Part shown: positions 3,833 through 62,800 of the stretch, piece by piece
Layout: each line of letters begins with the position of its first letter
How positions within the stretch are numbered: position 1 is the stretch's first letter
Assembly: GCA_003024785.1 (NCBI GenBank)
Contig: PUQB01000035.1
Coordinates: 558,001-622,000, forward strand
Direction: 5' to 3'
Length of the DNA stretch: 64,000 bases
Origin: Selaginella tamariscina
Lineage: Eukaryota > Streptophyta > Lycopodiopsida > Selaginellales > Selaginellaceae
The notes under the pieces: model-generated
What the model was told of the DNA's origin: nothing
The model's database searches: none
The model's input: only the letters and a program-made list of their open reading frames with translations
Position numbers and translations under genes: made by a program

Positions 3833-3923
<91 letters not shown>
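3833..3923. repeat. (GT)n-(GA)n compound microsatellite
   Basis: About 25 bases of GT repeat are followed by about 65 bases of pure GA repeat. The equivalent site in copy 3 (53,655-53,712) is much shorter and interrupted, so the locus is variable. Reading frames across it encode only dipeptide repeats and are not genes. Confidence 0.95.
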
Positions 3924-3925
<2 letters not shown>

Positions 3926-4925: not shown

Positions 4926-5026
4926 TGGAAATTTGTATACAAATGTGACAAAGTATTTACAGAAGTATATACATAATATTTATTTAAGTATATGTACATA
5001 AACACATTATACTCAAATAACAATGA

Positions 5027-20277: not shown

Positions 20278-20455
20278 ATATATGAACGTTGAAAAAATGG
20301 GAATATCTGTAATTCATTTTCTTTATAATTAACAATTTTAATTATTTAATTAATATTTTTTAATAAAAAAATAATGTTTAGAATAATTTACATTTAAAGA
20401 AAGAATATTCTTTAAAATGTATGTTTAAAATATTTTTCATATTCTTTCATATATT
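20278..20455. mobile_element. Insertion of about 175 bp, MITE-like
   Basis: Copies 1 and 3 of block R1 read straight through from AAAATTGTATACATC to AAAAAACGGCC. This copy has about 175 extra AT-rich bases at that point. The insert contains AAAATGGGAATAT near one end and AAAGAATATTCTTTA inside, like the ends of the 14.5-kb element at 29.15-43.69 kb. It could be a small non-autonomous relative or a relic. Its own terminal repeats are not clear. Confidence 0.45.
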
Positions 20456-27344: not shown

Positions 27345-27990
27345 CGTCAACAGCATCGATATGTATGGCCAACCTCATCACACACCCAACAATGGACTGG
27401 ACTGCCACGTCCACATCCACGTCCTTGGTTAGGAGGGGGGCTACCTTCCGCCTGTTCCTCTATTGACTCCGGGGGTCATGGCTGCTCCTTACGGTTGGTA
27501 CATGGGTAGCAATAGCATCAACCTCCATCAAAGTAGAACCATCCCCAACATGAAGTGAACCTAAAGCACACGAAGTTGCAAGTGGGAGAGTCAATGTTTC
27601 ATATTGTTGTGCCAGCCACATAGCATCATCAAGGGTCATTAGAGCCAGTGCATGCACAAGCCCCACAAGGTCTTAACAAAGTGTTGGGCACAACATAGTA
27701 CCTAATTTAATATGTTCCGACATGTTAAGTTCTACATAAAGCAAAAGGTTCTAAAAGTAAACACCAAACTACATCACTGACTCAGATGGCTCCTAACAAA
27801 TACAATGCAATGGCTAGAAAGCATCATCACAATCGCCCAAATGCGCGTTTGAAGACCGTTGGAAGAGTATTCTAATCCCTACGAGTTGCTGTGTCCAAAC
27901 CATTGTACCACTACAACACCATCCCTTGACACAAACCATATGTTCCATTTTTAACTTCATTTTCCTTGACCAGTTATTTCATTGTTACAA
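27345..27990 (-). pseudogene. Gag with CCHC zinc knuckle, relic
   Basis: The knuckle CWVCDEVGHTYRC (C-x2-C-x4-H-x4-C) lies at about 27,360-27,400. Upstream, 27,460-27,666 reads LALMTLDDAMWLAQQYE, the typical end of the gypsy gag domain before a linker. Frameshifts separate the pieces. In copy 2 (59,861-59,900) a two-base deletion destroys the knuckle. Confidence 0.65.
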
Positions 27991-29152
27991 GTATAAATTA
28001 ATACACATGAGGCATTGCAAACATAAACATTAACAATGAAGAAACACCATATTTTAGGAAAAAAAAACATTAATAACATATAATGAAGAGGCATACAACA
28101 CATAAAGGCAATCAAAGAAAACATATATACAACTAAAAGTAAAAAGCATCCTTTATAAGCTGTGACATAGGGACATGGGTATGAAACATCACAATACAGT
28201 AGAACATGTATAAATTAAACATGTTAGGACTGGGGAAAATATTTAATTTAGAGAGGGTTTTAAATAAGGGAGGGCAGAACACAATAGCGTACAATAATAA
28301 TATATACAGTGGGGATCATGATTTTTATTTAATTTAAAGAGGGTTTTAATTTATACAAGTTTAATTTATACAGGTTTTACTGTAAAGCAGTCCAAAATAA
28401 ACATAAAACCAAGAAAAAGTATGTTTACATACTCAAGATACATAAAATCCTTAATCTTAATACTTAACTATAAATTAAAGAATGGCTACATAAAAGAAAA
28501 TATGTTTTCATATAAGAGAAACAAATGTTATATATTGAGAGTGAAACTAGAGGCAATGCAATATGTAGTAACATCCACAAGTAAGGAGCTACATTTATTA
28601 AATTCTATATGAACATAAAAAAAATGAAGAGAAAATTCAATTCTTATAATTTTAAGAAAATAAATTGAGTATCTACAATTTAAGATTTAATAATTTTATA
28701 CTGATATGTGAGTATGTCTCATTATTTCTATCTTTACCAGAATTTTCTGCATTTTTGTGTGTGCATGATTTTTTTAAAAACTAATTATGTTCTTCCTTAT
28801 TTATAATTATTTTAAGTTTATTTCTTTAAATGTTCCCTTATATGTAAATTCCCCATAAATTAACTATAATTTTTACATACTTAATTTAATTAAATTTTAG
28901 TTTAATTAAAATAAATATATTTACTATTTCTATTTACTATTTAGTTTAATATATATTATTTGTACATTTATTCACTATATTTTGAATAGTTTGATTTAGT
29001 TTATTTTTAGTTTTAATAATAAATATATATAAACCAATTTAACCACACTTGTTAATTAATATAGATGTTTGCTAGAATTCACACTATGTCACACTAATAT
29101 ATTATCATATGTATAAACCTATAATAAATAATGGTTAACATACATATATGCA
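27990..29152. other. Non-coding flank shared with 60.4-61.45 kb
   Basis: AT-rich sequence, no gene seen. It aligns along its length with 60,400-61,450, apart from about 80 extra bases near 28,205-28,380 here and about 110 extra near 61,255-61,360 there. It may contain the gypsy 5' LTR. The last shared motif, ATGGTTAACAT, directly precedes the 14.5-kb insertion. Confidence 0.7.
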
Positions 29153-29173
29153 GTTGTAACTAAAATGGGCATG
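29153..29173 (+). repeat. Left terminal inverted repeat
   Basis: The 21 bases match the reverse complement of 43,670-43,690 with a single A/G difference. Beyond it the two ends diverge, apart from a TCCCATT/AATGGGA-type motif about 15-20 bases further in. Confidence 0.85.
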
Positions 29174-29943
29174 GCTATAGTCCCATTTCCTAATAATTAG
29201 CAATTTTAGCTATTTAATTAGCATTTTCTAATATTAAAGGAATATTCTTTAGAATATATGTTTGAAAAGAGAATATTCTTTAGAATATTCTATTTTGTAT
29301 TCTACCTTTAATAAATTATAGCATTCATTGAACAAAAATTAATAACATTATAAAAGTAGAAGTATTAAATTATATAATATATTGCCTAATATAACAATTA
29401 AGGAAGTAAGAGGTACATTATATAAATATTGATGTTGTTATTAAAATATTAATATTTAAATATAACATTATTAATTAAAAATTTGTAGTAGTAATAATAT
29501 ATATAAAATCCTATAATAATATAGTCAATCTTCCATATCATTTTTTAAATTTATATAGTTAAGTATACAATTTGGTACTATTATTAAAGAGTTTATAATA
29601 ATTATGAATATTAAATATATGATATTTTATAATTTTGTAATTGCTTTAAGCTTCAGAAAACATACATTCCTTGCAGTTTTGTTAATCGTGACTTTATCAA
29701 CGCTTCTTGACATCCACCTATCGAATGGATTTAACATTTATAAAATGCTGGGTCTTTTTGATTGGGAGACCATGTTTTTCTAGGCATCCATTATATCTTT
29801 CGCTCTCCTTCTCGTGTCGCCTTTTTTGTGGTTTGAACATGCAACCTTAACAATATTTTTTGTGATTACTTCAGGTGTGTCGATAATTTGACCCATCCAA
29901 ATAGGCTGATTATATGACGCATCTGGAGTAATGAGAACCATCA

Positions 29944-32733
29944 TTAGTTTTTGAAGATCCTTGCAGCAATCAAAGTATGCTTTAGGTTTTTGGTTCCTTT
30001 GTCAACAAAGTGTGGGGTTTGCACTTCCACATCACTACTGGCTTCTATGTCGTCTGTGCTCAGTGATGTCATTTCAATCTCCTCTCGCCACCTTGTTTTA
30101 GGCCAGAAAGGGTGTTGCAATTCTGTACTTGTGACAGTAGGCCCTTCCAACTCTCGAACAACAGTCTCCCAATAGTCGACCATGCTTATATAGTTCTGAG
30201 TAACCAGTTGCCTTATCAGAATTCTTTGGCATCGATTTTTGAACCATGCCACATATTTTTTGATGCCATCAATAATAACCTCTTGTTCCTTGAGCTGGGC
30301 ACTCAATGGAATAGGGTCTGGTTGTCCTTCTGGGAGAAGTGGCTTTCCATCCTCCACTTTTGAAGAGCATTAACCCTCTTTCGGTAACCACTCCTGCTCT
30401 GATGGCCGTAACTTGTACTGCATAATAGGTATACCATCTCGTATGGAGAAAAAGAATTGTAGCGGCACAAGGTGACCAACTAAAGAATCACTCCCTTTTT
30501 ATATACTCCTTGAGAAATTTTTTGAAGTCTGGCACCTCAGTCACAAGCAAAGCACAACTTTTTTTGGAGATGCAATTTTCAAAAAGATTCATCATATGCG
30601 GTAAGGTAAGTGCACTTGTCCTTTTTGTAGAGTTGGAGACCTTGCTGAAGAACGCATCAATATCTTCATGAGTGTGACCAACCATAAGGAAACTGAGCGT
30701 GATTGTTTCAAACACACCTTTGGCAACAAGCATTGACAAGTATGCTAGCACATATCTAGAAAATAAAAGTAAGTATGAGCTTGAGAAACCTTAAGTAAAA
30801 TGATTTACCTATTTTTGTTCTCGCCTGCACAATTATCCATCTGTAAAAGCAAATGACGAGGAAGCTTATTTGATGTTGAGGACACATGTACACTATTTGA
30901 GCTAGATCCTCCACTGAACCTGAACTCTCAACAGGGCATCTGTTTTTGTGCAGGTTGCTGACAATGCCTCTCATATTCCCAAGTAGCCTCAAGTGCAGAC
31001 GTGTTCATGAGAGCATTATGTAAAGGTTGAAGGTGTTGTTTCTTCACTTTGAGATCACTGATAGGACTTGTCTGTGAGTGGGCTTCAAGGTTTCTGAAAC
31101 ACATGGCTAACGACCAATAGTGAAATTGGAGTCGCTAGACCAATGTGGAAGTGAAAAGTGTCCATATGATCACAACCGTGTCCATGTGTTAGCACTGTCA
31201 ATGAAATCGGAAGTTTCATGACATTTCCAAGGCACTTTGGTGTTGCAAAGAGCTTTGGAATGCTGGTCTTTGAATGATCCATCTTGTCATGGATCAAGCA
31301 CAGGTACTCTGATGGGTGACACAGAAAGCATGCGGTGTGCATAGTACTGAGACCGGCAAGTTTGTTGTGCAATCATGTGGGCCTCCATCTTCTTTGAATG
31401 GCAGTGTCTCCACCAAGGTTTTTGCACAAGCCTCTGCAGCCTTCAATGATGTACAAGTGTCACACTTGGAAAAGCTAGAGTGTTTTGCAATCTCCACATC
31501 CTTAAAATGAGTATTCATATGTTGTTGAAGGTACAGTGCAGATTGCTTGGAGCCCATCAAACTGAGGCACTTGTTCACATGTTCACACAGTTTCAATTGA
31601 GTGTAGATTGAAGGTAAAACCTTGAGATTTTCCCTGACCCCTGCATTTGTGGTTCGGCATTTGTGAGGCATCCTGTCTGCATTTGCTTCCACAAAAGCCT
31701 TGAGTATCTCTATGGCTGCCATGATGTGAGAGCGGGTTTTGACCAAGCGTGTTCCCATGAACTGAGGTTCGCGCTCCATCTAGCCACTCATCCCTCCGAC
31801 GGTAGAACGTGGTCTTTGGGATCCCGTATATACTGTACCAAGCTTTGAAGCAGATGGCCACCTTATTAAATACCATGGATGTACTCTGATAACCTGTGTC
31901 CGAGGCCATTCCATCAATACACCCAGTTAGTGCAGCATATACAAACTCATGCCTTTGCTTTTGGGTGAGCATACGAAAGACATGTCTACATTGGGTAATT
32001 TCATTCCGGTCTGCCATCTGACAACACTTCTTCTTGCAACAGTCAATCGTGGAAATGCTCGTAACACTTTCGGAAGATGTAGGATCCATCTTTACCCTCT
32101 TGCTGAAACTTGCAGGGGAAGATCTACAACCCATGAATCGCCTTTTTCTTACAATAGGACCAATGCAAGGAACCTCTTCAAATATGAGTTGTTCTTCCGG
32201 GTTGTTATTATTGAAATCCAACCCAGAATATGTTGAACCATCTTGCCGTCTTAATTCAGATGTTCGCCACCTCACGAGGGATCCAGGATACAATGTGCCA
32301 TTAGGTGAAACCTCTGTCACAACTACACCCACGAAGTCGGACCCTAGTTTCTCTTCTGACACTGCTTCCATTGGATTTATAGCTGTGATGATGCCTCTTC
32401 CGACTTCAATCTCACGAAGAAAGAGAATCACCTCATCCATCACAGCAGGCAAGCCATCATCTGGTAAACTCGTGCTACTATTTGTTTGTGACTCTGCATA
32501 TTCTGTGTCAGCCTTGACTTCATCCAAATTCCACAATACAGGAGAACCCTCCTCAAATTCCATTCCCAGAACCTCAACATGCTTGTAAATGGTGTTCACC
32601 CATACGTACACACAAGATCCTTGGGAATATTGTGACATGATGCATTATTATCTCGAACTTCCACAGTTCCAGTGCCAACTATCTCGTTGTTCCGAAGAAG
32701 ACATACTTTATCTCCAGTATTAAACATATTGTC
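29944..32733 (-). pseudogene. Transposase-like gene with GHTHEDID motif (DUF7869-like)
   Basis: Minus-strand segments in several frames join into one protein. It starts with an upstream exon ending at AG, 32,733 (FNTGDKVCLLRNNEIVG). Next is a long part to about 31,600 with a CCKKKCC cysteine patch and YGIPKTTFYRRR, probably helix-turn-helix. A helical part with CDTC follows, then DKMDHSKTSIPKL, QMDNCAGENKN and FLMVGHTHEDIDAFFSKVS, and a tail with MQYKLRPSEQEWLPKEG. The 53-bp intron at 30,756-30,808 has GT and AG ends and restores the frame. The spaced D, DN and H-x-ED residues suggest an RNase H-type catalytic core. At least four frameshifts (near 32,625, 31,780, 31,370, 30,490) break this copy. 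The DUF7869 name is from memory. Confidence 0.75.
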
Positions 32734-32880
32734 CTGCACATAAATAATTGTATTATTTATGATATCTGTTTATGCAATATTTTAAGAAATCTGAATTACG
32801 GTTACTTAATAATATGCATATGCAATAATACATAATTATGTTTAGAGATAATATCTCATGTTTGATTAATACAACTGATG

Positions 32881-33790
32881 GGCGGGATTAATCCCGCCCA
32901 CGAATCCCTCCGACGAGGAACGGTCGGCGGGATTAATCCCGCCGCCGACTCAACCCCTTCGGAGAGAGTCGGCGGGATTAATCCCGCCTTGGACTCCCTC
33001 CGACAAGGAAGAGCCGGCGGGATTAATCCCGCCGCCTCTTCCTCCTCGGGGGGAGTCCGGCGGGATTAATCCCGCCGACTCTCTCCGACGAGGAAGGGAG
33101 TCCGGCGGGATTAATCCCGCCGCCGACTCAACCCCTTCGGAGAGAGTCGGCGGGATTAATCCCGCCTTGGACTCCCTCCGACAAGGAAGAGCCGGCGGGA
33201 TTAATCCCGCCGCCTCTTCCTCCTCGGGGGGAGTCCGGCGGGATTAATCCCGCCGACTCTCTCCGACGAGGAAGGGAGTCCGGCGGGATTAATCCCGCCG
33301 ACTCATCCTCGCCGGAGAGAGTCGGCGGGATTAATCCCGCCGGACTCCCCGAGGAGGAAGAGGCGGCGGGATTAATCCCGCCGGCTCTTCCTTGTCGGAG
33401 GGAGTCCAAGGCGGGATTAATCCCGCCCACAATTCTTACGACGGGGAATGGGTGGCGGGATTAAACCCGCACATAACTCTCTCCAAAACTATGATTTCAA
33501 AGAGATCTCGGGATAAATCCTGTCCCCAAATCTTTAAAACAGGGAAGTGGTGGCGAGATTAATCCCGCCACCCCTTCCCTGCCTCCTAAAATGGTTGGCG
33601 GGATTAATCCCGCCGACAACTCTTTCTAATAAATTCTGGTAACTCTTCATCAGTTGAGAAGGTTATCGACGGGATTAATCCCGCCACTCTTTTTCAGTGG
33701 CGGAGAAGCATTGCCCGGAGATGGTGGCGGGATTAATCCCGCCACTCTTCAAGAGGCGAAAAAGAAATGGCCGGATTAATCCCGCCGCCC
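32881..33790. repeat. Palindrome array 1 (about 19 copies)
   Basis: The perfect 18-bp palindrome GGCGGGATTAATCCCGCC, or a 1-3 base variant, occurs about 19 times at roughly 30-50 bp spacing. Spacers are GC-rich (for example CTCTCTCCGACGAGG). A section of about 130 bp is tandemly duplicated (from about 32,928 and 33,105), and 33,150-33,290 is inverted at 33,300-33,430. The array starts about 150 bp upstream of the transposase-like gene, so it probably lies in its promoter. Open frames over it read GGINPA on both strands because of the palindrome and are not genes. Confidence 0.95.
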
Positions 33791-33799
33791 CGTTAACCT

Positions 33800-35200
33800 A
33801 GAATATTAAGTTAAAAGGATATTTAAACGGATAAATCCCTAACGGAATATATTATAATCCTAATGCATTTCTAAACCCCTAAATTGTAATTTTAAGAGAG
33901 AATGTAAGAGAGTGAATCTTATAAGTATTTTTAAATTTGTTTATAATACTTACTTGTAAACAGCACTGAAGGCGCCGTGCTTTCCTATAAAGAATAGCAC
34001 CCAATTTAATCTCGCTCCTGAGATGATCACTATGAAGAAAAAAGAAGATCTAAAGAGTGAAAAATACAGAAATGAAGAAACCCTTGCCGGAGAAAGAACC
34101 AGATCTGAATTTGAGTGGGAAATTAAATGCATTTTCAAATTTACATGTCAGACCGACAATACATATGTCAGAAATTCAAATTTTTTAAAAAGAACAGAAA
34201 ATAAAATTTAAGATGAGTTGACACAAATATCCGACACTCTGACATATATACTCTCCAGTTCCAATGAGTATTTTAAAATTGCATTTAATGTTATTCAAGT
34301 GATTCAAGCTGTTTAATATTACGAAATTTTAGACTATATTCTACATTCTTAGTATTCAAGTATATTTATATTATATATATATATATATATACTTATACAA
34401 TAAATAAATTGATATATTATTATGTATCATTTAAAATATATTCATAGTCTGTTTATTATTATTATTTTCTTAATTACTCGAGTATTTAGTTTTCATTTCC
34501 TAGTATCAATGGGATATTCTTTAATATTTTATTAATATTTGAAGAATATTCTAATATTAAACCTGATTATCATAATTAAATTAGTCTTGTTCTTAATTAT
34601 TGCAGTAATTATTCTACATTTGTATATATTAATGGGATTTTCTCAATTAATTTGTTATTATTTCAAGAATATTCATGTGTTAAACCTTATTATCAATATT
34701 AAATTAATACACACTATGAACATATTTTAAATTATACATAATAATACATCATTTTATCTAATATATAGTCATATATAGTTTTAATAATATATATATTAAT
34801 ATCATTTCCTTAATTACTTGAGTAATTAATCTTCTTTATATTAATGGGATATTCTTTATTATTTTCTTAATTATTCCAAGAATATTCCAATATTAAACAT
34901 GATTATGATAATTAATTTAGTTAATTATTTGAGTACTTAATTTACATTTGTATATATTAATGGGATTTTCTCAATTAATTTCTTATTATTTCAAGAATAT
35001 TTCAATGTTAAACCTTTTTATCAATATTAAATTATATATATTATTAAAACTATATATGGCTATATATTAGATAAAATCATATATTATTATGTATAATTTA
35101 AAATATGTTCCTAGTGTGTTTATTAATATTATTTTCTTAATTATTCGATGTTTGTTTTGCACACATATATAAACACAATCATAAATTTACACACGCATTA
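33800..35200. other. AT-rich core with about 150-bp repeats
   Basis: No gene is seen. The motifs AATGGGATATTCTTTA, CAAGAATATTC and TATTAAACCTGATTATCA recur three to four times (from about 34,505, 34,630, 34,845 and 34,960). They resemble the GAATATTC-rich ends of the element. A short reading frame at 34,023-34,211 is Lys/Glu-rich and not supported. Confidence 0.6.
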
Positions 35201-35426
35201 CAAGAACTTACAAAAACACATATGCACACACATGCACAACCCTAAACCAAACTGAAGAAATATGTTGCTTCTTTATTGAAAACATCATGTTCAACGCATG
35301 TATGATATATGTACTCAATCTGTGTGTATGTCATTGAATTTACATGTGTAATATTTATATTAAGCTTGTTGGGAGCAAACTAAATGTGTATACATGTGTG
35401 TAATATTTTTAACTCTCTTTGGGAGC

Positions 35427-35852
35427 AAACCCTAAACCTAAACCCTAATATGTAACACAATGAATTTACTCGTAATATGTATGTATGTCTGTGTGTATAC
35501 ACGTGTGTATGTATATATGTGTACTCTGTATGTATATGTGTACTTTTGTCTTCTTCTACATACACACCATGCATGATCTATAATATATACTCGGTCTCTC
35601 AAATATTATGTACTAATATGTATGTATGTCTGTGTGTATAATACACACCATGCATGATCCATAATATGTACTGTCTCTCTTCTCTCATATACTATGTATG
35701 TATATCTGTGTATAATATGTGTAAGTATATATGTGTACTAATATATGCAATGTGTACAAAAATAATTTTTCAACACTCTCTCTTCTCTCATACATACACA
35801 CCATGCATGATCCATCCTAAATCCAAAACCCTAAACCCTAAACCCTAAACCC
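35427..35852. repeat. Interstitial telomere-like repeats (CCCTAAA)
   Basis: CCCTAAAC/CTAAACCCTAA occurs at 35,427-35,449, and four head-to-tail CCCTAAA units lie at 35,825-35,852. The sequence between is TATG/TGTA-rich with repeated CACCATGCATGATC. These match the plant telomere unit on the C-rich strand. Confidence 0.85.
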
Positions 35853-36063
35853 ATGTAATATGTATGTATGTCTGTGTGTATACACGTGTTTGTATATATT
35901 ATGTGTATTAATATATGCAATGTGTATGTATGTACTGATACACATGAAACTTTAACACTCTCATGGACACACACATGTTAAATCCTGCATGATTTATATT
36001 TTTGGGGTGTATGTGATACACCCACGCACATGCACGCGCTAATAATATAATGAAAGAATATTC

Positions 36064-36182
36064 GTTTAGGGCGAATCTATATTTTATTCTTTTTAGGGTT
36101 TAAGTATATTCTCAGAAAAGATATTCTATTAGGGTTAATATATATTTATTCCTTTAGGGTTTAGGTATATTCTTAGGGTTTC
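36064..36182. repeat. Dispersed TTTAGGG motifs
   Basis: Five TTAGGG or TTTAGGGTTTA motifs lie within 120 bp on the opposite strand to the CCCTAAA run 210 bp upstream, separated by AT-rich sequence with ATATTC motifs. They could act as telo-boxes (AAACCCTA promoter elements) or be degraded telomeric DNA. Confidence 0.7.
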
Positions 36183-36235
36183 AAGAGGCGGCGGCTATGA
36201 AATCGGCGGCGGCGGCTGTGCACACAGGTGAGATC

Positions 36236-36239
<4 letters not shown>

Positions 36240-36268
<29 letters not shown>

Positions 36269-36530
36269 ATATGTATAGGAGTGTGCGTATAATTTTATTT
36301 ATTAGTTTTATCTCTCGCACACACACGCACACTCCTGTGTATGTATATGTGTGTGTGGGTGTGTGTTTGTTTATCTGTATGATTTTATTTGTTTCGCTCA
36401 CACACGCATACACACGATATACATATACACATATATATATACCTATATACATATATACATACATATATTATGTGTACCAGTATCTATAAAAAATTTTATT
36501 GATCTATCTCTCCACACACACGCACACTGC

Positions 36531-36593
<63 letters not shown>

Positions 36594-36930
36594 CAATCAT
36601 ATTAACAAATAGTATACAACACTAGTTTATATATATGCTTATATATTCATATGGGTTATATATATACACACATATATATATGTGTGTGTTTATCTGTATA
36701 ATTTTATTTATTTATTAGTTTTATCTCTCGCACACACGCACACTCCTGTGTATATATATGTGTGTGTGTGTTTGTTTATCTGTATGATTTTATTTGTTTC
36801 GCTCACACACGCATACACACAATATACATATACACATATATATACCTATATATATAATACATATATTATGTGTACCAGTATCTATATAATTTTTTTTATT
36901 GATCTATCTCTCCCACACACACGCACACTG

Positions 36931-36970
<40 letters not shown>

Positions 36971-37312
36971 CATGCATATAACAAATAGTATACAACACTA
37001 GTTTATATATATGCTTATATATTCACAGACTCTCTATATCTATATACACACATATATATGTGTGTGTTTATCTGTATAATTTTATTTATTTATTAGTTTT
37101 ATCTTTCGCACACACATGCACACTCCTGTGTATATATATGTGTGTGTGTGTTTATTTATCTGTATGATTTTATTTGTTTCGCTCACACGCATACACACGA
37201 TATACATATACACACATATATATACCTATGTACACACATATATTATGTGTACCAGTACTGTATAATTTTATTTATTTATCTATCTCTTGCACACACACGT
37301 ACACTCCTATAC

Positions 37313-37359
<47 letters not shown>

Positions 37360-37430
37360 TATATATGTGTGTGTTTTTATCTGTATAATTTTTTTATTTA
37401 TTAATTTTATCTCTCGCACACACGCTAAGC
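36240..37430. repeat. Threefold tandem unit of about 390 bp, microsatellite-rich
   Basis: The order TTTTATCTCTCGCACACAC, TTATCTGTATGATTTTATTT, TTCGCTCACAC, TATTATGTGTACCAGTA recurs with starts near 36,280, 36,690 and 37,075. CA, TA and TG runs inside vary between units. The long reading frames here only read these repeats. Confidence 0.85.
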
Positions 37431-37435
37431 CCTCG

Positions 37436-39030
37436 AGCGGCGGATTAATCCCGCCACTATAGGTTTATGGCCTCGGCGGCGGGATTAATCCCGCCGCTAT
37501 ATGGTTGGGGCCATGGCGGCGGGATTAATCCCGCCACGAGGCCTTCACACAGCTATGGGCGGCGGGATTAATCCCGCCGCTCTAGGACAAACCGAAGAGC
37601 GGCGGGATTAATCCCACCGCCCATGGCCTGTGGGGCCTCGGCGGCGGGATTAATCCCGCCGCTCACCCATGCCCTGGCGGAATGCGGCGGGATTTATCTC
37701 GCCGGCAATGGCCTGTGTGAAGGCCCTAATGGCGGGATTAATCCCGCGGATTCCGCGCAGGGCATTTACAGGGGATGGGCGGCGGGATTAATCCCGCCGC
37801 TCATGAGGCTAACCGAAGAGCCTGCATCAAAGATCCTGCACGGAAGGCTAACCGAAGAGCCTGCATGACATGTCCTGCGCGTAAGGCGGCGGGATTAATC
37901 CCGCCGACCAGGGAATTCACGCAGGACATGAACGGCGGGATTAATCCCGCCCCACGCTCATGCCCTTCGCGGAGGGCGGCGGGATTAATCCCGCCACTCA
38001 GGCACTTCCGCAGGATATAAGCGGCGGGATTAATCCCGCCCCATCCCTGTTCAAAATGCGCAGCCAATATATATGTGTAAGCGCATGATTTACGAGAGGG
38101 CGGCGGGATTAGTCTCTCCGAACCTTCATTGCCCGGTGGCGGGATTAATCCCGCCACCCTTCTTTTTTTCCTCCATTGGTATGTTGAATCAATCCCGACT
38201 AACTCTGTCTGAGACGGAGAAGGTTTACAAAATACCAATGGAGGGAACTGAGAAGGGTGGTGGGATTAATTTCACCATCCCTTACATGGTGGGCGGGATT
38301 AATCCCGCCGCGTACGCATGCCCTACACGGAATGGGCGGGATTTATCCCGCCGCCATTGGCCTGCCTGAAGGGCCTAGGCGGCGGGATTAATCCCGCAAG
38401 ATTTCGCACAGGGCATTGGCGTTCGGCGGGATTAATCCCGCCGACTAAGGCCGAGTGAAGGGCCTGGGAGGCGGGATTAATCCCGCCGGACGCCAATTCC
38501 CTGCGCGGAATCGGGGGATTTATCCCGCCGCCATTGGCCTGTCTGAAGTGCCTAGGCGGTGGGATTAATCCCGCCCGATTCCGCGCAGGGAATTGGCATC
38601 CGGCGGGATTAATCCCGCCGCATAGGGACCGAGTGAAGGCCCTGGGCGGCGGGATTAATCCCGCCGAGTCTTCAATGCTGTTGGAGGAATGAATCCCGCC
38701 ACCCTTCGCTTTTTTCTCCATTGGTGAGTCGGACCAATCCTAAACGTTTCTGTCTGAGACGTAGAAGGTTTTCAACATACCAATGGAGAGAATTGGGAAG
38801 GGTGGGGAAATTCATTTAACCATCCCTTACATGGTGGGCGAGATTAATCCCGCCCCTTTCTGGAGTCACTGAAGGGGTGTGAGAAATAAATCCTGCCCAG
38901 TTCTCTCTGAGACCGAGAAGGGTGGCAAGATTAATTCCGCACTCCCGTTCAAGGCCTCCAGAAAGGTGGCGAGATTAATCCCGCCCACTCTTTCAGGAGG
39001 CATTGAAGGGGTGGCGAGATTAATCGCCGC
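37436..39030. repeat. Palindrome array 2 (about 29 copies)
   Basis: About 29 copies of GGCGGGATTAATCCCGCC or near variants (GGCGAGATTAATCCCGCC becomes common after 38,830) are separated by about 30-55 bp spacers with motifs such as CCTGCGCGGAA and GCCTGTCTGAAG. Two larger hairpins (CCATTGGTAT paired with ATACCAATGG, about 38,172-38,241 and 38,712-38,787) lie within it. The array ends about 340 bp upstream of the right-hand gene, mirroring array 1. Confidence 0.95.
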
Positions 39031-39142
39031 ACCTTCCATGTGAATATATATGTGTATTAGTATATATAAGTTGCATATCTCATTTTATTTACTTTTATCA
39101 TCTTATTATAATATTTCGAGTAAAAGCTAGGAATCTATGTAA

Positions 39143-39228
39143 AACTGTCCAGAGCTCACATTTGTGGTGGTTCTAAAACGAAATGTTATTTTCTTTTGCA
39201 CTAGCACAAATGTAAGCTTCGGACAGTT
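39143..39228. other. Foldback: 24-bp inverted repeat
   Basis: AACTGTCCAGAGCTCACATT at 39,143 (24-base arm) pairs with 39,205-39,228 (CACAAATGTAAGCTTCGGAC, continuing AGTT) with three mismatches and a 38-base loop. It lies between palindrome array 2 and the first exon of the right-hand gene. It could be a small-RNA precursor, a leader hairpin or a protein-binding site. Confidence 0.6.
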
Positions 39229-39370
39229 AATTACGTCTACTTCTCTCTGTGTATTATTTTTGTATATTCGGGTTTATACAAGTGTGTGTGCGTTTTTATA
39301 TGATTTGTATTCATAGTGTATTATTTTGCAGAAGGACGATTTGATCAAACAAGGAGATCGAGTCATTAGT

Positions 39371-42300
39371 ATGGAGTCGTCGTCAAATTCTGGGTAAGAA
39401 TTAAAATAAAATTGTTATACTCGGATACTTGAACTAATCATTTTTGTATTCAGATGTGGAATTGAGGTGACATTAAAGACAAGAGCAGGAGAAGAGATGG
39501 GCAGGGGGATTCTGGAATCAACTTGGCCATATTTTAAGATAAATGGGAAGCGCATTGGAGCAACCATGGCTGCTGTCAAATTAACCTCTGTCACATCTCA
39601 TGGACAAGCAAAACAATGGAAAGTAGATTCGCTAGTCAAGCACCCGAAAGCAGGCTGCGAACCCAGATTGGACGATTCTCGACACATATGCCTTGTTCCA
39701 TCCAATGTCACGTTCTCGGATCCAGAGGTCGTCAGTTACAACATTAATTTCGGGTGGTTTTGTCGACTTGTGGATAATGACGTTCACGTGTTCACTAATG
39801 ATGTTGACCTTGGAGTTCTTCTTCAACTCAACGAAAGCCCATCTATGGAGGGGATCCATCTGATGTCTACTTCGAAAATCTTCAGACTCATCGAGTAGGT
39901 GTATTGTCAGGAGATATTGCTTCACAATACAGAAAATCAGCAAGTGAAGCAATCTTCCCTCTTCACATTGAAGAAGAACACAGCGACATCATAATGGAGA
40001 TTGAGAGGGTGGCTCGGTCTCAGGTTCTCTACAGATCACGTTCAATTTGCTTAGGGAGCTTTGGGAGCTGGAAGAGTGTACCGAGAACACTAGAACAGCT
40101 GCAGTCGGGGATCACACATGTTGATTCGGATCGCAAAAGAAAATCATCAATCGTTTTGTCAGCTGCACCTGTGGCATCTCATGCTGCAATAAGTCACAAG
40201 GAAATGATGTTGGATGATAAGATTTATCCTTGTAGGTTAAATATTGCAGCGTCAACCCAAACTTCAATTACAGGCCACTCAACCAGGAACGTGTAGCTGA
40301 GCTCATGGAGAAGATGAAGGACGACAATTCTTATACCGTTCCACATAATGCTGTTTTGTGTCCATACTATGAAAGAAGGAAGGGCGCTGACAAAGTCTGG
40401 ATCACAACACCAGAACAACTCATGAAGATTCAGACAGAGAATAGAAAATCTATCAAGTACTACATCATTAGTGGCCAGCACACAATAACGGCATCCCAAC
40501 GACTTCTCGATGAACACAACAAAGGAACGATGGCAACAAAACTTTCCGAGCATACCCGTGAGAAGCTGACAAAAAGATTGGCGTTTTTAGCTAAGCCGAA
40601 TCTCACAATCGAGCAGTACCATAAGTTATCGGCGGAATGGGACACTGCCGACACCAACCACTACAACAGCAAAATATGGGAGAAGTTTAAACACACGCGA
40701 GCCGTGTGGGAATCTCTTCAGCGACCACAAAGAGCTACCGCAGGGAATACACAATCTGCAGAATACCGGGTAAGCAAATTGTTTGGGCGGGATTTATCTC
40801 GCCGGTATATTAATCTGTCTTTTTCCTCAGAGAGTTGAAGAAATTGCAGTAGTTGATTTTGCCCAGGTGGGCGGGAAGGAAACATCCTTTCTGATGATGT
40901 TGATTTCTTGCCCCGAAGATAGGATCTTTGCCAAATGGTTGGGGATTATGGAATCCTTTTCAAAAGGAACACTGAAGAATAAGCAGACAAGTGAAGGGGA
41001 GCCCTCAGAAAAGTCTGCGAAGAAACCCAGTAAGACGCCGAAGGCTAAGTCTGTTCAATCTACAAAGGATGTAGACAACGATTTCAAGCTCACATGGTTG
41101 AAGCCTTTAAATGGAACAACGATGGAGGAGATGGAAGTCTTGGCTGATTTGGTGATCGATGGCAAACTACAAATTAATAACAGCAGCCCAACCTCTGCTT
41201 TTCATCTCAAGGCAATGGAGTTGAAGACGGTCAGGCATTTAAGGAGTGGTTGGGAATACACTGCCACAAATTGGGTTGGACCTCGACTTCAACATATGAA
41301 GAGGTCAGCAAATATTTGCATGTGACGAACGATGATATGCTTGTCGAATGGGTGAACCAATTGGAAGATCTAGGCAAGAATCTATTGCACGCCAACGCCA
41401 AAAAGGAGAACATTGGGATGACGCCTTCTCTTATGGCAGTCCTTCAACAGCGGAGAACCGAATTGAACTTTATAAAGGAGGATGCTACGAATCACGACAA
41501 GCCCAAATGTTTGTTGTTAGATTCGGAGACTTTATGGGGTAACATCACTGCTTGTAGGAAACCGTTTCAATTGTTCGTGATGGATCGGCGGGTGTCAAAA
41601 AATCTTTCGACAGATAGGGCACTAGAGGATCTGGTGGAGAAACTTAGCCGTGCAAGCATATACATAAAGGTATTTATTATTGAATTCATGCTTGCGCTCT
41701 TCACTGATACCTACTTTTTCAGGTATTTATTTCTTGATTCTTGCTCATGTCACCGATACTTTTGCCTTCGCCTTCGCCAAGAAGAATAGACATCGTTGGA
41801 CAGGATTTTATATGAACGATGCTAATCCCAAGTGCATTGATAGCGTTGTTCACTTGGTTGTTAGGAATGCGCCAAACAATTTCAAGCAGATGCAGAAGAT
41901 CTTGAACCATCTCACAAGCGGCTTAGACCTTCTGCGCCTCACTCAGAAGGTAATAGCGAAGAAGAATTGATAATGAATTGATAGAGTGATGAATAGTTGT
42001 AAATGAGTGTAACATAAGGCATTTTTGTATTTTTTTATATTTGTACAGAAAATAAATTCTCAAGGATTAATGAAGCTTTTAGTTCAAACATGGGTCACAC
42101 ATTAACAAGGTAAATAATATACCTTGATAATTTTAAGGTCAGCTAATTATCATTTTGCAGATGTAATGAAATAATTAAGAACATGGATTTTCAGCATTGG
42201 CATGAGGTAAGAGAGGGGTTTGGCGACAATTTCTTGTGCCACATGTCAGGATGACAGAGTTCATGCAGGAAATGGATAATAATGCAGCTCAAAACATCAT

Positions 42301-42394
42301 TACCATGGGGCCACTTCATCATCATTTTTATTGGCGAAATCAATTTCTTCAGCGCATGCAATATCTGAATCTTGTAAGGATGATGTACAATTAA
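39371..42394 (+). pseudogene. Multi-exon gene with ParB-like SGQHTITA motif
   Basis: Seven exons with GT/AG borders can be drawn: 39,371-39,393, 39,454-40,769, 40,831-41,669, 41,723-41,949, 42,049-42,109, 42,161-42,206 and 42,250-42,394 (stop TAA). The start is ATG at 39,371 (MESSSNSG, joined to CGIEVTLKTRAGEEMGRG). Exon 2 has NPNFNYRPLNQERVAELMEK, then IKYYIISGQHTITASQRLL. This resembles the ParB/sulfiredoxin-fold pattern in which a G-Q-H/HR loop binds nucleotide. Exon 3 has a basic low-complexity linker (KPSKTPKAKS). Single-base losses near 39,852, 40,247 and 41,215 shift the frame, and exon 4 needs another shift. A partner of the transposase is my inference from the shared element. Confidence 0.6.
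40788..40806. promoter_or_regulatory. Degenerate palindrome inside an intron
   Basis: GGGCGGGATTTATCTCGCC, in the 61-bp intron between exons 2 and 3 of the ParB-like gene, differs from the array palindrome at three positions. It is the only clear copy outside the arrays in this element, so it may be a chance outlier or a bound site. Confidence 0.5.
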
Positions 42395-43407
42395 ATAATG
42401 AAGGGATAGGCAACGAGATAGTGGCAACGGATAAATGTGAAAGGGAGCAAACAAGTGATTTGCAAAGTATTCAAGAGGCAACGCCATCTCATGTTACTCA
42501 TGGCCATATTGTGTTGTTGGATGTTAATGGTGTTCTGCTTCATCGACAAAGGCCCCAGGATAGAAAAAAAGAAATCAAACAAGGAGATTTCATTTCTTGT
42601 CATGGTAAATTTCGATATGATATTATTTTTCGTCCAGGGTTGGATTGTCTCTTTCAAAAGCTTAAGGAGATGGGTGCGCTTGTGGGGATTTGGTCATGCA
42701 TGCAGATTCATAACTTAACACCGCTGTTGAATTTACTTAAGAAACATTGTAGTGTTGCATAAGAGATGATTCGTAAAGATTGAATTTTTGACCAGCGAAT
42801 GTGTCATAAACCTCTCGAATTTCACAATATAAGAAAGGAAAGCAAGCCATACTTCTTCAAGAATGAAAGAATAATTGGGACTCATGGGGAGATCAGTCGC
42901 TTAAGGATAACGAAGAATGCACATATCTTAGTAGTAGATGACTCTCCTCAGAAGGCTATGCTCAACCAAAACATTGCTTGTATTCATCCAATCACTTTCG
43001 ATCCATATTCTGATACCGATATCATGGATGAGCTAGTGAACTACTTGGATACGTGCCTCAGAAAGAAGAATCTCGAAAATTTTTGTGAGCAGTATCCACC
43101 GTATCATACATTTCCTGAAGTTTTTCTTTCTCGTGATATTGAATTTTATAAAATGAAGGATAGCAACCGGGCGCTTTATAATATTATTCTTAAGGAACGT
43201 CAGTTTTTAGATGAGCCTTTATGCAGACCTTCTCTTATCACATCTTATGTATTAACAAGGATGGCAACTCCCAATTGCATTCGTGAGAGTGTTAAGTGGT
43301 GGCAACAACATCAAGATATTGACCAAAATGATTTGATTAATCCGGAGAGTGATGATTTAGACAAAATGAAAAGATTTCTTTGTATGATAGAAAGAAAGTA
43401 TTTATAA
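42331..43407 (+). pseudogene. FCP1/HAD-type phosphatase-like gene with two stops
   Basis: One frame runs through. Residues about 62-75 give GHIVLLDVNGVLLHR, the HAD motif I with nucleophile D and N in place of the second D. LGALVGIWSC-type motif II follows (MGALVGIWSCMQIHNL), then ILVVDDSPQKAMLNQN as motif III, and FDPYSDTDIMDEL. Stops at about 42,760 (TAA) and 42,780 (TGA) interrupt the frame between motifs II and III. The C-terminal part ends at 43,407. FCP1-like enzymes dephosphorylate serine residues of nuclear proteins. The DxNG form seen here is, from memory, common in plant relatives. The 5' end overlaps the last exon of the preceding gene in another frame, so its true start is uncertain. 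Confidence 0.75.
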
Positions 43408-43669
43408 AAAATTAACATGTTGATAAGAAAATGATTTCATTTGTAATTATGTTTGATAGTATTTCTTCATTATTGTAAACTATTTTTTAGAATAATATGA
43501 ATATTCTAAGATATTTTAGGAATATTCCTTACTAAGTAAGGTTATTGAAGGATTAATTAATTAATTAATTAATATTTAAGGCTTAATTACATATTAATTA
43601 AATAATTAATTAATAATTAAAACTTAAGTATTAATTAGTAATTTATTTTATATTCCCATTTTCACGTAT

Positions 43670-43690
43670 CATGCCCACTTTAGTTACAAC
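43670..43690 (-). repeat. Right terminal inverted repeat
   Basis: It is the reverse complement of 29,153-29,173 with one difference. Shared flank sequence resumes about 11 bases later (TTAGCCAACAT at 43,701). Confidence 0.85.
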
Positions 43691-43700
43691 GTGCATATAT

Positions 43701-44840
43701 TTAGCCAACATACAACCGTATATGCAACGCTAGTGACATCTAATTTATATACACCCCTCTAACCAAAACACATTACATATAACCTTGAAATACACATATT
43801 AACTTACACCTTTGAACATACATTAAGAAATGGTATTAATAAAAAATATATATATATTTCTTATATCTAACATGAAAATACAAGGAAAAAATATATGTAT
43901 TCCCCTTTACACCTTAAACATACCTTAATAAATGGTATTGATAAAATATATATATCTTTTTTCTATATCTAACATAAAATATATAGAAAAAATATATGAA
44001 TTGCATTTGAAATGCATTGTTTCTTTGTATTTCCAAATTTGAAATTCTTCTTTTAAATTAATCTTTTAATTATCTTATGTCAAAACTATAGACTTTAAGT
44101 TTGATAAGATATTCAAACAATTTCAACTAACATGCTTAAAGGCAGGACAAGTGTGGAGGGAATAAGAAAAAAATTCTCTAATGAACTATGTGAAATATAA
44201 CAAAAACGAAAAGCCTATGTTCTTTTTTTATTTGAGTCACTATGTAATGTTCTATGTAGACATTGTTCATAGTACATGTTATTATTTAACTTAAAACTTA
44301 AATATAAAGTAAGCTTGTTAAGTGCAAAAGGAACAACAAATTTAAGAAAGGCCTATAAGAGATCTGTAAAGAAAATTTAAAACATAAGTAATTCAACCTT
44401 TAAAAAGTGTGTCCAATAATGAATGTATTTGGTTAGTTATTGACTACCCTACTATAAAATCATATATACAAGGCCTTATTTTTCAAACATAAAAAAAAGA
44501 TATACATTTAAGAATTACATGTATTTTGATTTTGTATTTTTTACCTTTGTATATTTATAAAATATATATATTTTTGTATACAATTATTCCTTATATCCTT
44601 AATTCTCATCTTATTGGACGTTAATTAGATAAATCACACCAACAACTATGACTCTTCTTTGATACCAAAGAGATTTATCCTATCGAACACTTTTTAACCT
44701 CCATGAATCGAGAGGGATTTATCTTTGTTTGTTAAGGATTTATCCTACCCAACCATTGTTACTTTTTAATGCCCACACAAATGGTCAATAATTTTTAACA
44801 TGCAAAAGGAAAACATTTTTGTATTTATTTTGTTGTTGTA
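43701..44840. other. Non-coding sequence shared with 61.45-62.58 kb
   Basis: It aligns with 61,450-62,575 (CAACGCTAGTGACAT, GAAATGGTATT, AATGAACTATGTG). No gene is seen. Near 44,620-44,760 it has several GGATTTATCCTA-like motifs that recall degenerate halves of the palindrome, also present at 62,370-62,500. Confidence 0.7.
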
Positions 44841-50393: not shown

Positions 50394-51093
50394 CTCATTT
50401 GTTAAAACATAAATAAATTTAAACCTTTTCATCCCGACATTTACACATAAAACATGTATTCTAAGGCATATAGCATAAACCAAAGTTATATTTCCCCGTA
50501 TCATTAGCATATTCGTGAATAGTTCACTCGACATCTTTATTCATTGTATAACACATAAGTATATGTAACATATAACGACGTATATCCATTACTGAGAAGA
50601 AGCATTAAAATATAGGAAATTATATGTCAACATTTTATGCATTTGTATTAAATATATACACATTATGTACATAAATTTGTGTGTCTATACGTTAAAAATT
50701 GTATACATCAAAAAACGGCCAGACACAGCACACACACACATATACGCACATATATATGTGTGTGTGTGTATAGAGAGATGTATATAAACCTACACATCTA
50801 TAAAAACAGACAATAATACACATAATAAGCATAATGTGCGAGAGGATATGCGAGTGCATCTAGATACAGGTAGATGTCATATATGTATGTAGTATTGTGT
50901 CTGTGTGTATGTACGTATAATATAGCATGTATATTCCAGTCATACGGTTATATTGTATGTAAACACCATGAGTTCATAATCAATGTAGAGCACTTTATAT
51001 AATATATATATATATATGAATTTAATATGTACACTTAATATATATATGTACTGTTTAAAATCTTAAACCAGAAAATAAGAAAAATAAGTATTA

Positions 51094-51164
51094 TGGAGGT
51101 GAAGGGCATCAATCCCCTTACCTGTCGCATGCAAAGCGATCGCTCTACCATCCGAGGTACACCC
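51094..51164 (-). pseudogene. tRNA-Ala(UGC)-like sequence
   Basis: All arms are recognisable and the anticodon is TGC. The D stem is mispaired (TACCTCGGATGG), the anticodon stem has one mismatch (GCGAC), and the acceptor has one base fewer. Confidence 0.55.
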
Positions 51165-60400: not shown

Positions 60401-62575
60401 AGTATAAATTAATACACATGAGGCATTGCAAACATAAACATTAACAATGAAGAAATACCATATTATAGAAAAAAAACATTAATAACACGTAATGAAGAGG
60501 CATACAACACATAAAGGCAATCAAAGAAAACATATATACAACCAAAGTAAAAAAGCATCCTTTATAGGCTATGACATAGGGACATGGATATGAAACATCA
60601 CAATAAAGCAGTCCAAAATAAACATAAAGACCAAGAAAAGGTATGTTTACATACTCAAGATACTTTACTTTATCCCCAATCTTAATCTTATTATTTTTTT
60701 AAACCCTAAGTCAATTTTACTTAACTATAAATACATAAAAGGAAATGTTTTTCATATAAGGGAAACAAATGTTATATATTGAGAGTAGTGAAACTAGAGG
60801 CAATGCAATATGTAATAACATCCACAAGTAAGGAGCTACATTTATTAAATTCTTATATGAACAAAAAAAAATGAAGAGAAAATTACTCAATTCTTTATAC
60901 TTTTAAAGAAATTAAATTGAGTAATTTACAAATTTAAGATTTAATAATTTTATAATTGGTATGTGAGTATTGTCTCACTATTTCCTATCTTTACTGGAAA
61001 TTTTTTTAAAATAATTATGTTCTTCCTTATTTATAATTATTTTAAGTTATTTCTTTAACCGTTCCCTTCTATGTAAATTCCCCATAAATTAACTTATTTT
61101 CTACATAACTTAATTTAAATAAATTTTATTTTAATAATAAAAAGTAAATATATTTACTATTTATTATATTGTACATTTAGTCACTATATTTTGAATAGTT
61201 TGATTTAGTTTATTTTACTTTAATAATAAATATATAAACCAATTTAACCACACTTCATATTATTTAATATAACTCTATATATTTATTTATATAATTTAAG
61301 TTATACATATACTTTTATATATACATCATTATATACATATATAATTTACTAATTAATTACATAGATGTTTGCTAGAATTCACACTATGTCAACACTATAT
61401 TATATATGTATAACACTATAATAAAATACATGGTTAACATATACATATTTAGCCAACATAAACCCTATAAGCAACGCTAGTGACATATAATTTATATCAC
61501 CTGTCTAACCAAACATTACATATAACCTTGAAATACACATATTAATTTCTTTGAACATACATTAAGAAATGGTATTGATAATATATATATATATATATTA
61601 TAATATTATATATTATATATATATTTCTTATATCTAACATGAAAATAAGGAAAAAATATATGTATTCCCTTTTACACCTTTACCTTAAGAAATGGTATTG
61701 ATAAAATATATATATCTTTTTTATATCTAACATAAAATATATAGAAAAAATATATGTATTGCATTTGAAATGCATTGTTTCTTTGTATTCCCAAATTTGA
61801 AATTCTTATTTTAAATTAATCTTTTAATTATCTTATTTCAAAACTGTAAACTTTGAGTTTGAAGATATTAGAACAATTTCAACCACATGCTTAAAGAAGG
61901 AAGGACAAGTGTGGAGGGAATAAGAAAAAAATTCTCTAATGAACTATGTGGAATATAACATAAACATGTTTTTTTTTTTGAGCCACTATGTAATGTTCTA
62001 TGTAGACATTATTCATAGTACATGTTATTATTCAACTTAAAACTTAAATATAAAGTAAACTTGTTAAGTGCAAAAGGAACGACAAATCCAAGAAAGGCCT
62101 ATAAGAGATCTGCAAAGAAAATCTAAAATATAAATAATTCAACCTTGAAAAGTGTGTTCAAGAATGAATGCATTTGGTTACTTATTAGCTACCAATCATA
62201 TACACAATGCTTCATTTTTCAAATATAAAATAAGATTACATTTAAGATTACATGTATTTTAATTTTGTATTTTTGACCTTTGTATATTTATAAAATATAT
62301 ATATACATTTTGTATATTATTATTATCTTATATTATTCCTTATATCCTTGGATTCTCATCCTTATTGGACGTTGATTGGATAAATCAGCAACAACTGTGA
62401 CTCTTCTTTGATATTGGGGAGATTTATCCTACGAATATTTCTTACCCTCCATGGATCCAAGGGGATTTATTTGTTTGTTGAGGATTTATCATGCCCAATC
62501 ATTGCTGCTTTTCAATGCCCACACGAATGTTCAACAATTTTTGGTATGCAATCGTCAAAATGAACATTTTTTATT
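60400..62575. other. Non-coding flank; empty site of the 14.5-kb element
   Basis: It aligns with 27,990-29,152 and then with 43,701-44,840. The two parts meet at about 61,440-61,452 (TGGTTAACATATACATATTT, then AGCC) without the insertion. No gene is seen. Confidence 0.8.
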
Positions 62576-62579
62576 TATT

Positions 62580-62800
62580 TTGTTGAACTTAGGTGTTGTT
62601 AGGCACCACTCGTACATCTAGAGACCCTCACAAGACCACCAACCTCCCCCGAGCTGTCTCTAGTCCCACACGCTGCTCTCTAAGAAAGGCTTCAAATAAT
62701 AGTGTGCCCTTAATTCTCTCTTAGATCTAGGTATAGCTCCTTAGGAATATTCTAGCTTATACCTTTCTGGGGAATATTCTTTGATTCGTTAAGTTTTAAG
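62580..62800. repeat. Possible LTR end of the gypsy element
   Basis: TGTTAGGCACC, CTGTCTCTAGTCCC and TTAATTCTCTCTTAGATC precede the pol gene at its 3' side and recur in part at 94-224. Boundaries and a target duplication could not be fixed. Confidence 0.4.

What the first reader, a model, noticed from the sequence alone, without database searches (positions are those of the whole stretch)
29153..43690. A 14.5-kb mobile element with its empty site in the same window
The sequence to the left (27,990-29,150) and right (43,701-44,840) is continuous at 60,400-62,575, so 29,153-43,690 is an insertion. Its ends are 21-bp inverted repeats with one mismatch. The gene set (GHTHEDID transposase-like, ParB-like, FCP1-like) and central palindrome arrays do not match a plant transposon superfamily I know (hAT, MULE, CACTA, PIF, Helitron).
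Basis: partly seen in the sequence, partly recalled or inferred. Interest (0 to 1): 0.95.

Follow-up and report, generated by a model that had tools for sequence, protein, structure and literature searches.

The report
Abundant 14.5-kb DNA transposon family
A 14.5-kilobase jumping DNA element, present in many near-identical copies in this genome, carries a transposase-like protein from a family without a given function, two further genes and dozens of copies of one 18-base palindrome, which makes it a good place to test whether a transposon binds or marks its own DNA.

Summary
The insertion is 29,148-43,696 (14,549 bp), with 26/27-bp inverted ends and a 4-bp target duplication, ATAT. The 21-bp end occurs 2,926 times exactly in the 300.7-Mb genome, control 0. 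One fetched copy lies inside another copy's gene 1 and gives a second empty site. So it is an abundant, recently active DNA transposon family.

Gene 1 (minus strand) is a DUF7869 protein (PF25273; 17 relatives; invariant Asp in three motifs; purifying selection). Gene 2 (plus strand, about 968 aa) has ParB-like and perhaps methyltransferase-like motifs, by eye only: no Pfam, PDB or database hit. Gene 3 is FCP1/NIF-like. An 18-bp palindrome recurs 43 times, mostly in two arrays upstream of genes 1 and 2.

The closest precedent seen in print is Sola1-1_Ec32 of Ectocarpus, with a ParB-methyltransferase gene opposite its transposase (PMC12477816). Sola membership and the transposase fold could not be tested. 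I judge it a new variant of a known kind, and infer that the palindromes are binding sites of the element's own protein.

The parts
29144..29147 (.). left target-site duplication ATAT
29148..29173 (+). left terminal inverted repeat, 26 bp
   Evidence: 92.6% over 27 columns to 43,696-43,670; 21-bp core exact
29780..32727 (-). gene 1, DUF7869 transposase-like protein; frameshifted in this copy; approximate 3' end; an intron between ...MDNCAGENKNR and YVLAYL... is inferred from GT/AG and frame
   Evidence: PF25273 E=1.2e-26 for the exon at 30,488-30,790; frames; longer frames in other copies
32881..33786 (.). palindrome array 1, 19 sites, upstream of gene 1
35816..35852 (.). 7-bp telomere-like tandem repeat (CCTAAAC, 5.3 copies)
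   Evidence: the label is recalled
36294..37425 (.). internal duplicated, microsatellite-rich stretch
37478..38985 (.). palindrome array 2, 23 sites, upstream of gene 2
39332..41970 (+). gene 2, ParB-like motifs at about 40,240-40,520; exons inferred by frame and GT/AG; one further palindrome at 40,786 in an intron; 484 bp missing at about 41,886 in this copy
   Evidence: deletion; no database hit
42283..43407 (+). gene 3, FCP1/NIF-like; broken by a stop between the two frames in this copy
   Evidence: PF03031 E=6.4e-05 for the first frame; 7.1e-13 for a protein joined from two other copies
43670..43696 (-). right terminal inverted repeat, 27 bp
43697..43700 (.). right target-site duplication ATAT
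60604..62585 (+). empty site in a diverged duplicate; junction at about 61,440

Best explanation
A large cut-and-paste DNA transposon family, amplified recently. Shown: inverted ends, 4-bp target duplication (mostly ATAT), empty sites, very many exact ends in the genome, three genes and two palindrome arrays. Inferred: the DUF7869 protein is the transposase (three conserved Asp motifs, probably a DDD catalytic site), cutting at ATGCA/TGCAT and joining to A/T-rich 4-bp targets. Inferred with less support (about 0.3-0.4): the plus-strand ParB-like protein binds the 18-bp palindromes upstream of genes 1 and 2 and so regulates or marks the element. The FCP1-like gene is a passenger or accessory gene.
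For: Ends: 2,926 exact, control 0. Identical 4-bp flanks in 8 of 8 copies with both ends found (of 10 used) and in 3 of 10 further end pairs. Empty sites: and the nested copy. 21 adjacent left/right pairs among 100 listed ends, 17 of them 13.8-15.4 kb apart. DUF7869: 17 relatives, invariant Asp, 16 of 23 variants synonymous, p=1.3e-5. Palindromes: 43, all inside the element, 0.00 expected; sharp information borders. Precedent for a ParB-methyltransferase gene opposite a transposase: PMC12477816.
Against: Five of ten arbitrary end pairs have no matching 4-bp flanks. The fold and activity of DUF7869 are untested. No solved-structure relative by sequence. Gene 2 has no profile or database hit, so ParB and methyltransferase are motif readings; its C-terminal exon shows no clear selection (4 of 12 synonymous). 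In the one other DUF7869 family looked at, 4 kb showed no repeated perfect palindrome.
Confidence: 0.85

Rival explanations
1. It is a member of the known Sola superfamily (Sola1-like), hence a large but ordinary member with a known kind of accessory gene.
For: 4-bp duplication and three invariant Asp motifs agree with Sola as I recall it; Sola1-1_Ec32 has the same layout, a ParB-methyltransferase gene opposite the transposase.
Against: No Sola sequence was at hand; bivalve Sola1 elements average 5,445 bp (passage of PMC10294476), far shorter; DUF7869 and Sola are not linked in anything I saw.
Confidence: 0.45
2. The palindromes are sites of the DUF7869 protein or of a host factor (for example E2F-like GGCGGG sites, recalled), and gene 2 has nothing to do with them.
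For: Both arrays lie upstream of genes, as promoter elements would; gene 2's ParB reading has no profile support.
Against: No test was possible; nothing observed speaks directly against it.
Confidence: 0.45
3. The gap at 61.44 kb is a deletion of an ancestral sequence.
For: The two loci are diverged duplicates (81.7-88.3%), so they alone do not give the direction.
Against: The junction equals the filled site minus element and one ATAT apart from two bases; the same ends lie at many loci; one copy is nested in a known sequence.
Confidence: 0.01
4. It is a viral or virus-derived insertion.
For: Large size and several genes.
Against: No relative of DUF7869 confirmed in viral contigs (33 pattern matches, 0 confirmed); no viral family in the Pfam scans; inverted ends with 4-bp duplications.
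Confidence: 0.02

Closest known systems
Sola1-1_Ec32 of Ectocarpus (PMC12477816; section 5 read in full, other passages)
   Same: Giant DNA transposon (21.5 kb) with, on the strand opposite the transposase, a long gene for a ParB-like plus methyltransferase protein (1,104 aa there; about 968 aa here, where both domains are motif readings).
   Different: Here the transposase is assigned to DUF7869, not to Sola; an FCP1-like gene and 18-bp palindrome arrays are present, which that section does not mention; sequence relation untested.
DUF7869 proteins (PF25273), for example Physcomitrium patens A0A2K1IP11
   Same: Same Pfam family; 17 of 17 relatives found carry it.
   Different: 27-49% identical; the element structure around those proteins was not seen.
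ParB-methyltransferase proteins of green and red algal transposons (cited in PMC12477816 as references 50 and 51; those works not seen)
   Same: Accessory protein said to bind and modify its own transposon.
   Different: PMC12477816 reports giant EnSpm elements in red algae (passage); no sequence compared.
KDZ, Plavaka, EnSpm and other elements with TET/JBP genes in fungi (PMC12730594, passages)
   Same: DNA transposons carrying a gene that acts on DNA modification.
   Different: Other transposases and termini; Zisupton makes 8-bp duplications (passage).
bacterial ParB-parS (recalled)
   Same: A protein with ParB-like motifs and clustered palindromes of similar length.
   Different: No partition function, no ParA seen, resemblance by motif only.

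Membership tests
TIR DNA transposon (class II) | terminal inverted repeats | tested here: met
TIR DNA transposon (class II) | fixed-length target-site duplication | tested here: met
   4 bp in 8 of 8; exact in 3 of 10 further pairs, five of ten without match
TIR DNA transposon (class II) | encoded RNase-H-like transposase | not tested
   fold prediction never ran (21 requests, machine busy); conserved Asp motifs only
DUF7869 (PF25273) | Pfam match above the curated cut-off | tested here: met
   93.9 bits against cut-off 26
Sola superfamily | 4-bp duplication (recalled) | tested here: met
Sola superfamily | homology to Sola transposases | not testable with these tools
   no Sola sequences held; the defining paper is not held
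EnSpm/CACTA (CMCT group) | 5'-CA..TG-3' termini in most cases (PMC12730594 passage); CACTA ends (recalled) | tested here: not met
   termini ATGCA..TGCAT; the 4-bp duplication lies within the group's 2-5 bp; Transposase_23 12.4 bits against cut-off 21
PIF/Harbinger | 3-bp TNA or ANT duplication (PMC12477816 passage) | tested here: not met
   4 bp
hAT | 8-bp duplication (recalled) | tested here: not met
   4 bp
MULE | about 9-bp duplication (recalled) | tested here: not met
   4 bp
KDZ (Zisupton) | 8-bp duplication (PMC12730594 passage) | tested here: not met
   4 bp
Helitron | no inverted ends, no target duplication (recalled) | tested here: not met
   both present
ParB/sulfiredoxin domain (gene 2) | profile match | tested here: not met
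   no Pfam family at E<=5; motifs by eye only
amino-methyltransferase (gene 2) | profile match and catalytic DPPY-type motif (recalled) | tested here: not met
   no Pfam family at E<=5; a motif-I-like stretch only, no DPPY seen by eye in the sequence
FCP1/NIF phosphatase (gene 3) | PF03031 above cut-off | tested here: met
   49 bits against 21.8; 23.1 bits for the window's first frame
FCP1/NIF phosphatase (gene 3) | intact DxDx(T/V) loop (recalled) | tested here: not met
   reads DVNGV

The most novel reading that the evidence does not exclude
A eukaryotic transposon with its own parS-like system: arrays of an 18-bp palindrome upstream of its divergent genes are bound, and perhaps base-modified, by its own ParB-like protein, a self-made chromatin or epigenetic island that controls the element, in a DUF7869 superfamily not yet described as transposons.
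Probability: 0.3. Interest if true: 0.85.

Novelty: new variant of a known kind. Interest (0 to 1): 0.62.

Why it matters
DUF7869 is a Pfam family without assigned function; here it is tied to defined element ends and target duplications, which gives it a testable role as a transposase. The ParB-like gene together with palindrome arrays makes the published suggestion that such proteins bind and modify their own transposon (PMC12477816) directly testable, because a candidate site is in hand. The family may fill several per cent of this genome: 2,926 exact ends in 300.7 Mb would be about 21 Mb if all were paired full-length copies, and about 9 Mb if the 42 of 100 listed ends that form left/right pairs are typical (rough estimates of mine; the 100 listed are the first by position, not a random sample).

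Tried and rejected
Rejected: deletion instead of insertion; hAT, MULE, PIF/Harbinger, CACTA, Zisupton and Helitron; viral origin. Reading all of the window's frameshifts as decay: doubtful, because gap bases exceed mismatches in 44 of 45 pairs of copies and reach 6.9 against 0.9 per kb in the closest pair, as assembly indel errors would give; gap bases also count longer true indels. The 484-bp loss in gene 2 of the window's copy is in none of the 8 other copies covering that stretch (c671b itself being the query; c113 does not cover it).

Led nowhere: homologue searches with gene 2 (7,905 candidates) and gene 3 (1,259 candidates), none at E<=1e-3; PDB by sequence (0; one chance-level hit, E=1.2; three chance-level hits, E 0.45-0.61); viral contigs; papers for DUF7869 (0 papers); three papers wanted are not held. 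The fold of DUF7869 never ran. A genome-wide count of the palindrome did not complete, nor a genome search with the empty-site region. A search for other DUF7869 families found 7 places with another codon; 4 kb around one of them hold a 35.5%-identical DUF7869 stretch and no repeated perfect palindrome of 12 or more bases, so palindrome arrays are not shown for other families. The host was not identified; relatives named Physcomitrium and a CCTAAAC repeat only hint at a plant.

Dropped rows: of 10 copies asked for one (C1048) was cut by its contig end and left out of the ten-copy set; of the 9 others plus the window, c1120 and c113 showed no right end in the stretch fetched and are outside the 8-of-8 count. 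Of 30 right-end loci, 14 (the window's own among them) matched in the orientation scanned, flank ATAT in 11 of these 14; the other 16 were not examined. Of 8 left-end loci, 4 matched in that orientation.
Full report
WHAT WAS CLAIMED AND WHAT IS THERE. A self-comparison shows the flanks continuous at 60.6-62.6 kb: 28,383-29,050 matches 60,604-61,255 at 81.7% and 43,697-44,835 matches 61,445-62,585 at 84.3%. The two 21-bp ends are the only matches in the window at up to 3 mismatches, 0.00 expected.

EXACT BORDERS. Other copies settle the borders. In the eight copies in which both ends were found (the window's and seven of nine fetched and used) the element begins ATGCA and ends TGCAT, and the next four bases are the same on both sides: ATGT, ATAT, ATAT, ACAT, ATAT, AAAT, ATGT, ATAT. 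In the window this gives 29,148-43,696 with ATAT on both sides. Removing the element and one ATAT gives the empty site apart from two bases in a TA run (my reading). A second, cleaner empty site comes from copy c1004a, which lies inside another copy's gene 1: the uninterrupted gene reads TTCAACATATTCTGGG, the interrupted one TTCAACATAT, element, ATATTCTGGG. In contig C716 a further copy, adjoining a gene of another DUF7869 family, matches from window position 29,148 on.

RESULTS AGAINST A SIMPLE PICTURE. Ten further end pairs, taken from the list, gave three identical 4-bp flanks (ATGT, AAGA, TAGA); two (ATTA, ATAT) fit if a base in or next to an end changed, by my reading; five did not match. 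The first set came from the best-scoring matches and is biased to young copies. Recombination between copies, misassembly or wrong pairing could explain the five; none of these was shown. Of 14 right ends readable in the orientation scanned (of 30 loci), the next four bases are ATAT in 11. So ATAT is preferred but not required.

COPY NUMBER AND AGE. The 21-bp end (A or G at position 13) occurs 1,482 times forward and 1,444 reverse in 300.7 Mb; the reversed-letter control occurs 0 times. Among the 100 places listed (the first by position), 21 adjacent left/right pairs converge within 25 kb, 17 of them 13.8-15.4 kb apart; 11 adjacent pairs diverge within 25 kb. Searches with 401-461 bases from the left end, gene 2 and the right end each scored 40 places, their cap, at 95-100% identity. 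Pairs of copies differ by 0.9 to 22.6 mismatches per kb, against 12-18% between the duplicated host blocks, so the insertion is younger than the duplication. Gap bases exceed mismatches in 44 of 45 pairs, which suggests indel errors in the assembly; the frameshifts in the window's genes should not all be read as decay.

GENE 1. On the minus strand, 32,727 down to about 29,780, lies a protein of the Pfam family DUF7869 (PF25273, E=1.2e-26 for one exon). A search of 5.77 billion proteins found 17 relatives at E<=1e-3 among 3,052 candidates, 27-49% identical, two of them named as Physcomitrium patens; 17 of 17 match PF25273. Asp is invariant at DKMD (17/17, two positions), QMDN (16/16) and HTHxDID (15/15, two positions). 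A DDD nuclease would show this, but the fold could not be predicted: the machine was busy at all 21 requests. Over ten copies the coding variants of gene 1 are 16 synonymous and 7 amino-acid-changing, plus one stop, where about 26% synonymous is expected by chance (p=1.3e-5): source copies are under purifying selection. A Transposase_23 resemblance at the N-terminus is below its cut-off and is not claimed.

GENE 2. On the plus strand, 39,332-41,970, lies a gene whose exons, joined from two fetched copies, give 968 residues. One stretch reads like the ParB/sulfiredoxin domain (VNPNFNYRPLNQERVAELMEKM ... YYIISGQHTITAAQRLL); near the C-terminus AWVFDYCTRGSVLKECYLRHTCVFAVEKD resembles motif I of amino-methyltransferases. 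Both resemblances are recalled, not profile hits, and I see no DPPY-type motif. There is no Pfam match at E<=5, no PDB match at E<=10 and no relative at E<=1e-3 among 7,905 candidates. Variants are 56 of 125 synonymous (p=2.8e-6), plus four stops: clearest in exon 3 (24 of 40), weak in exon 2 (28 of 73, p=0.023), not in exon 4 (4 of 12, p=0.51). The window's copy lacks 484 bp at about 41,886, the methyltransferase-like motif among them; the 8 other copies covering the stretch keep it.

GENE 3. At 42,283-43,407 lies an FCP1/NIF-like gene (PF03031, 23.1 bits for the window's first frame, 49 bits for a protein joined from two other copies). Its catalytic loop reads DVNGV, so the second Asp is Asn. 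Variants look neutral (5 of 29 synonymous, three further stops; p=0.66). No relative was found at E<=1e-3 among 1,259 candidates.

PALINDROMES. GGCGGGATTAATCCCGCC occurs 43 times in the window at up to two mismatches, all within the element, 0.00 expected: 19 sites at 32,881-33,786 upstream of gene 1, 23 at 37,478-38,985 upstream of gene 2, one in an intron of gene 2. Over 50 sites (up to four mismatches) each of the 18 positions carries 1.38-2.0 bits and none of the 12 positions on either side more than 0.61; 35 spacings are 40-46 bp. The copies compared hold 9 to 45 sites (the 45 of c1004a include one outside its element; c837 with 15 and c1248 with 9 have lost part of the arrays). Sharply bounded, evenly spaced palindromes are what a dimeric DNA-binding protein would select. 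Whether the 18-mer also occurs outside the element elsewhere in the genome is unknown, as that search did not complete.

HOW IT MOST LIKELY WORKS. Shown: a repeated element with inverted ends and 4-bp duplications. Inferred from established knowledge of such elements: cut-and-paste movement by the DUF7869 protein. Inferred with less support: gene-2 protein binds the palindromes, so that the element controls or marks itself. That step has a suggestion in print: in the 21.5-kb Sola1-1_Ec32 of Ectocarpus a 1,104-aa ParB plus N4C/N6A methyltransferase protein is encoded opposite the transposase, and the authors write that such proteins may bind and modify their own transposon (PMC12477816; section 5 read in full; other passages). 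That section mentions no palindrome arrays.

WHERE IT BELONGS. It meets the features of a TIR DNA transposon that could be tested. It fails the duplication length of hAT, MULE, PIF/Harbinger and Zisupton and the termini of the CACTA group, and is no Helitron. Sola is possible (4 bp and DDD as recalled; same layout as Sola1-1_Ec32), but no Sola transposase was at hand, so membership is neither claimed nor excluded. No paper of the held library contains the word DUF7869; that says nothing about Repbase, where the family may stand under another name.

OTHER DUF7869 ELEMENTS IN THE GENOME. A coding pattern that excludes this family's codon found seven further places; one of them encodes a stretch 35.5% identical to gene 1. 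Only 4 kb there could be read, without a repeated perfect palindrome, so the idea that each family has its own palindrome is untested.

VERDICT. Real, abundant and well defined; a new variant of a known kind. The unusual parts are the unnamed transposase family, the orphan ParB-like gene and the palindrome arrays.

Noticed in passing
window 20,294-20,418: A stretch 75.8% identical over 128 columns to positions 15-139 of the element's left end: perhaps an old relative or remnant of the family.
   Followed up: partly
window 1-9,500, 13.8-21.8 kb and 44.8-54.8 kb: Several blocks of the window are repeated to one another at 82-97% identity (for example 1,038-2,406 with 51,077-52,447 at 96.8%), so the host region itself is multiply duplicated.
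   Followed up: no
L078 and L079 (G000:C716:64,600-68,600): A second, 35.5%-identical DUF7869 gene with a copy of this element adjoining it; seven such codon variants in the genome.
   Followed up: partly
gene 2 exon 2 versus gene 1 exon 1, ten copies: Gene 2 exon 2 holds 77 variants in 1,293 bp, gene 1 exon 1 only 15 in 1,719 bp: uneven diversity along the element, unexplained; subfamilies or recombination.
   Followed up: no
copies c113 and c837 (L015/L016, L019/L020): Frames resembling a retrotransposon polyprotein lie inside these copies (for example FLGMAGYYRRYVKDYA in c113; resemblance recalled), that is, later insertions into the element.
   Followed up: no
window 35,816-35,852: A plant-type telomere-like repeat, CCTAAAC x 5.3, inside the element.
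   Followed up: no
window 43,552-43,647: An imperfect palindrome next to the right end that matches itself in reverse in the 40 right ends scored.
   Followed up: no
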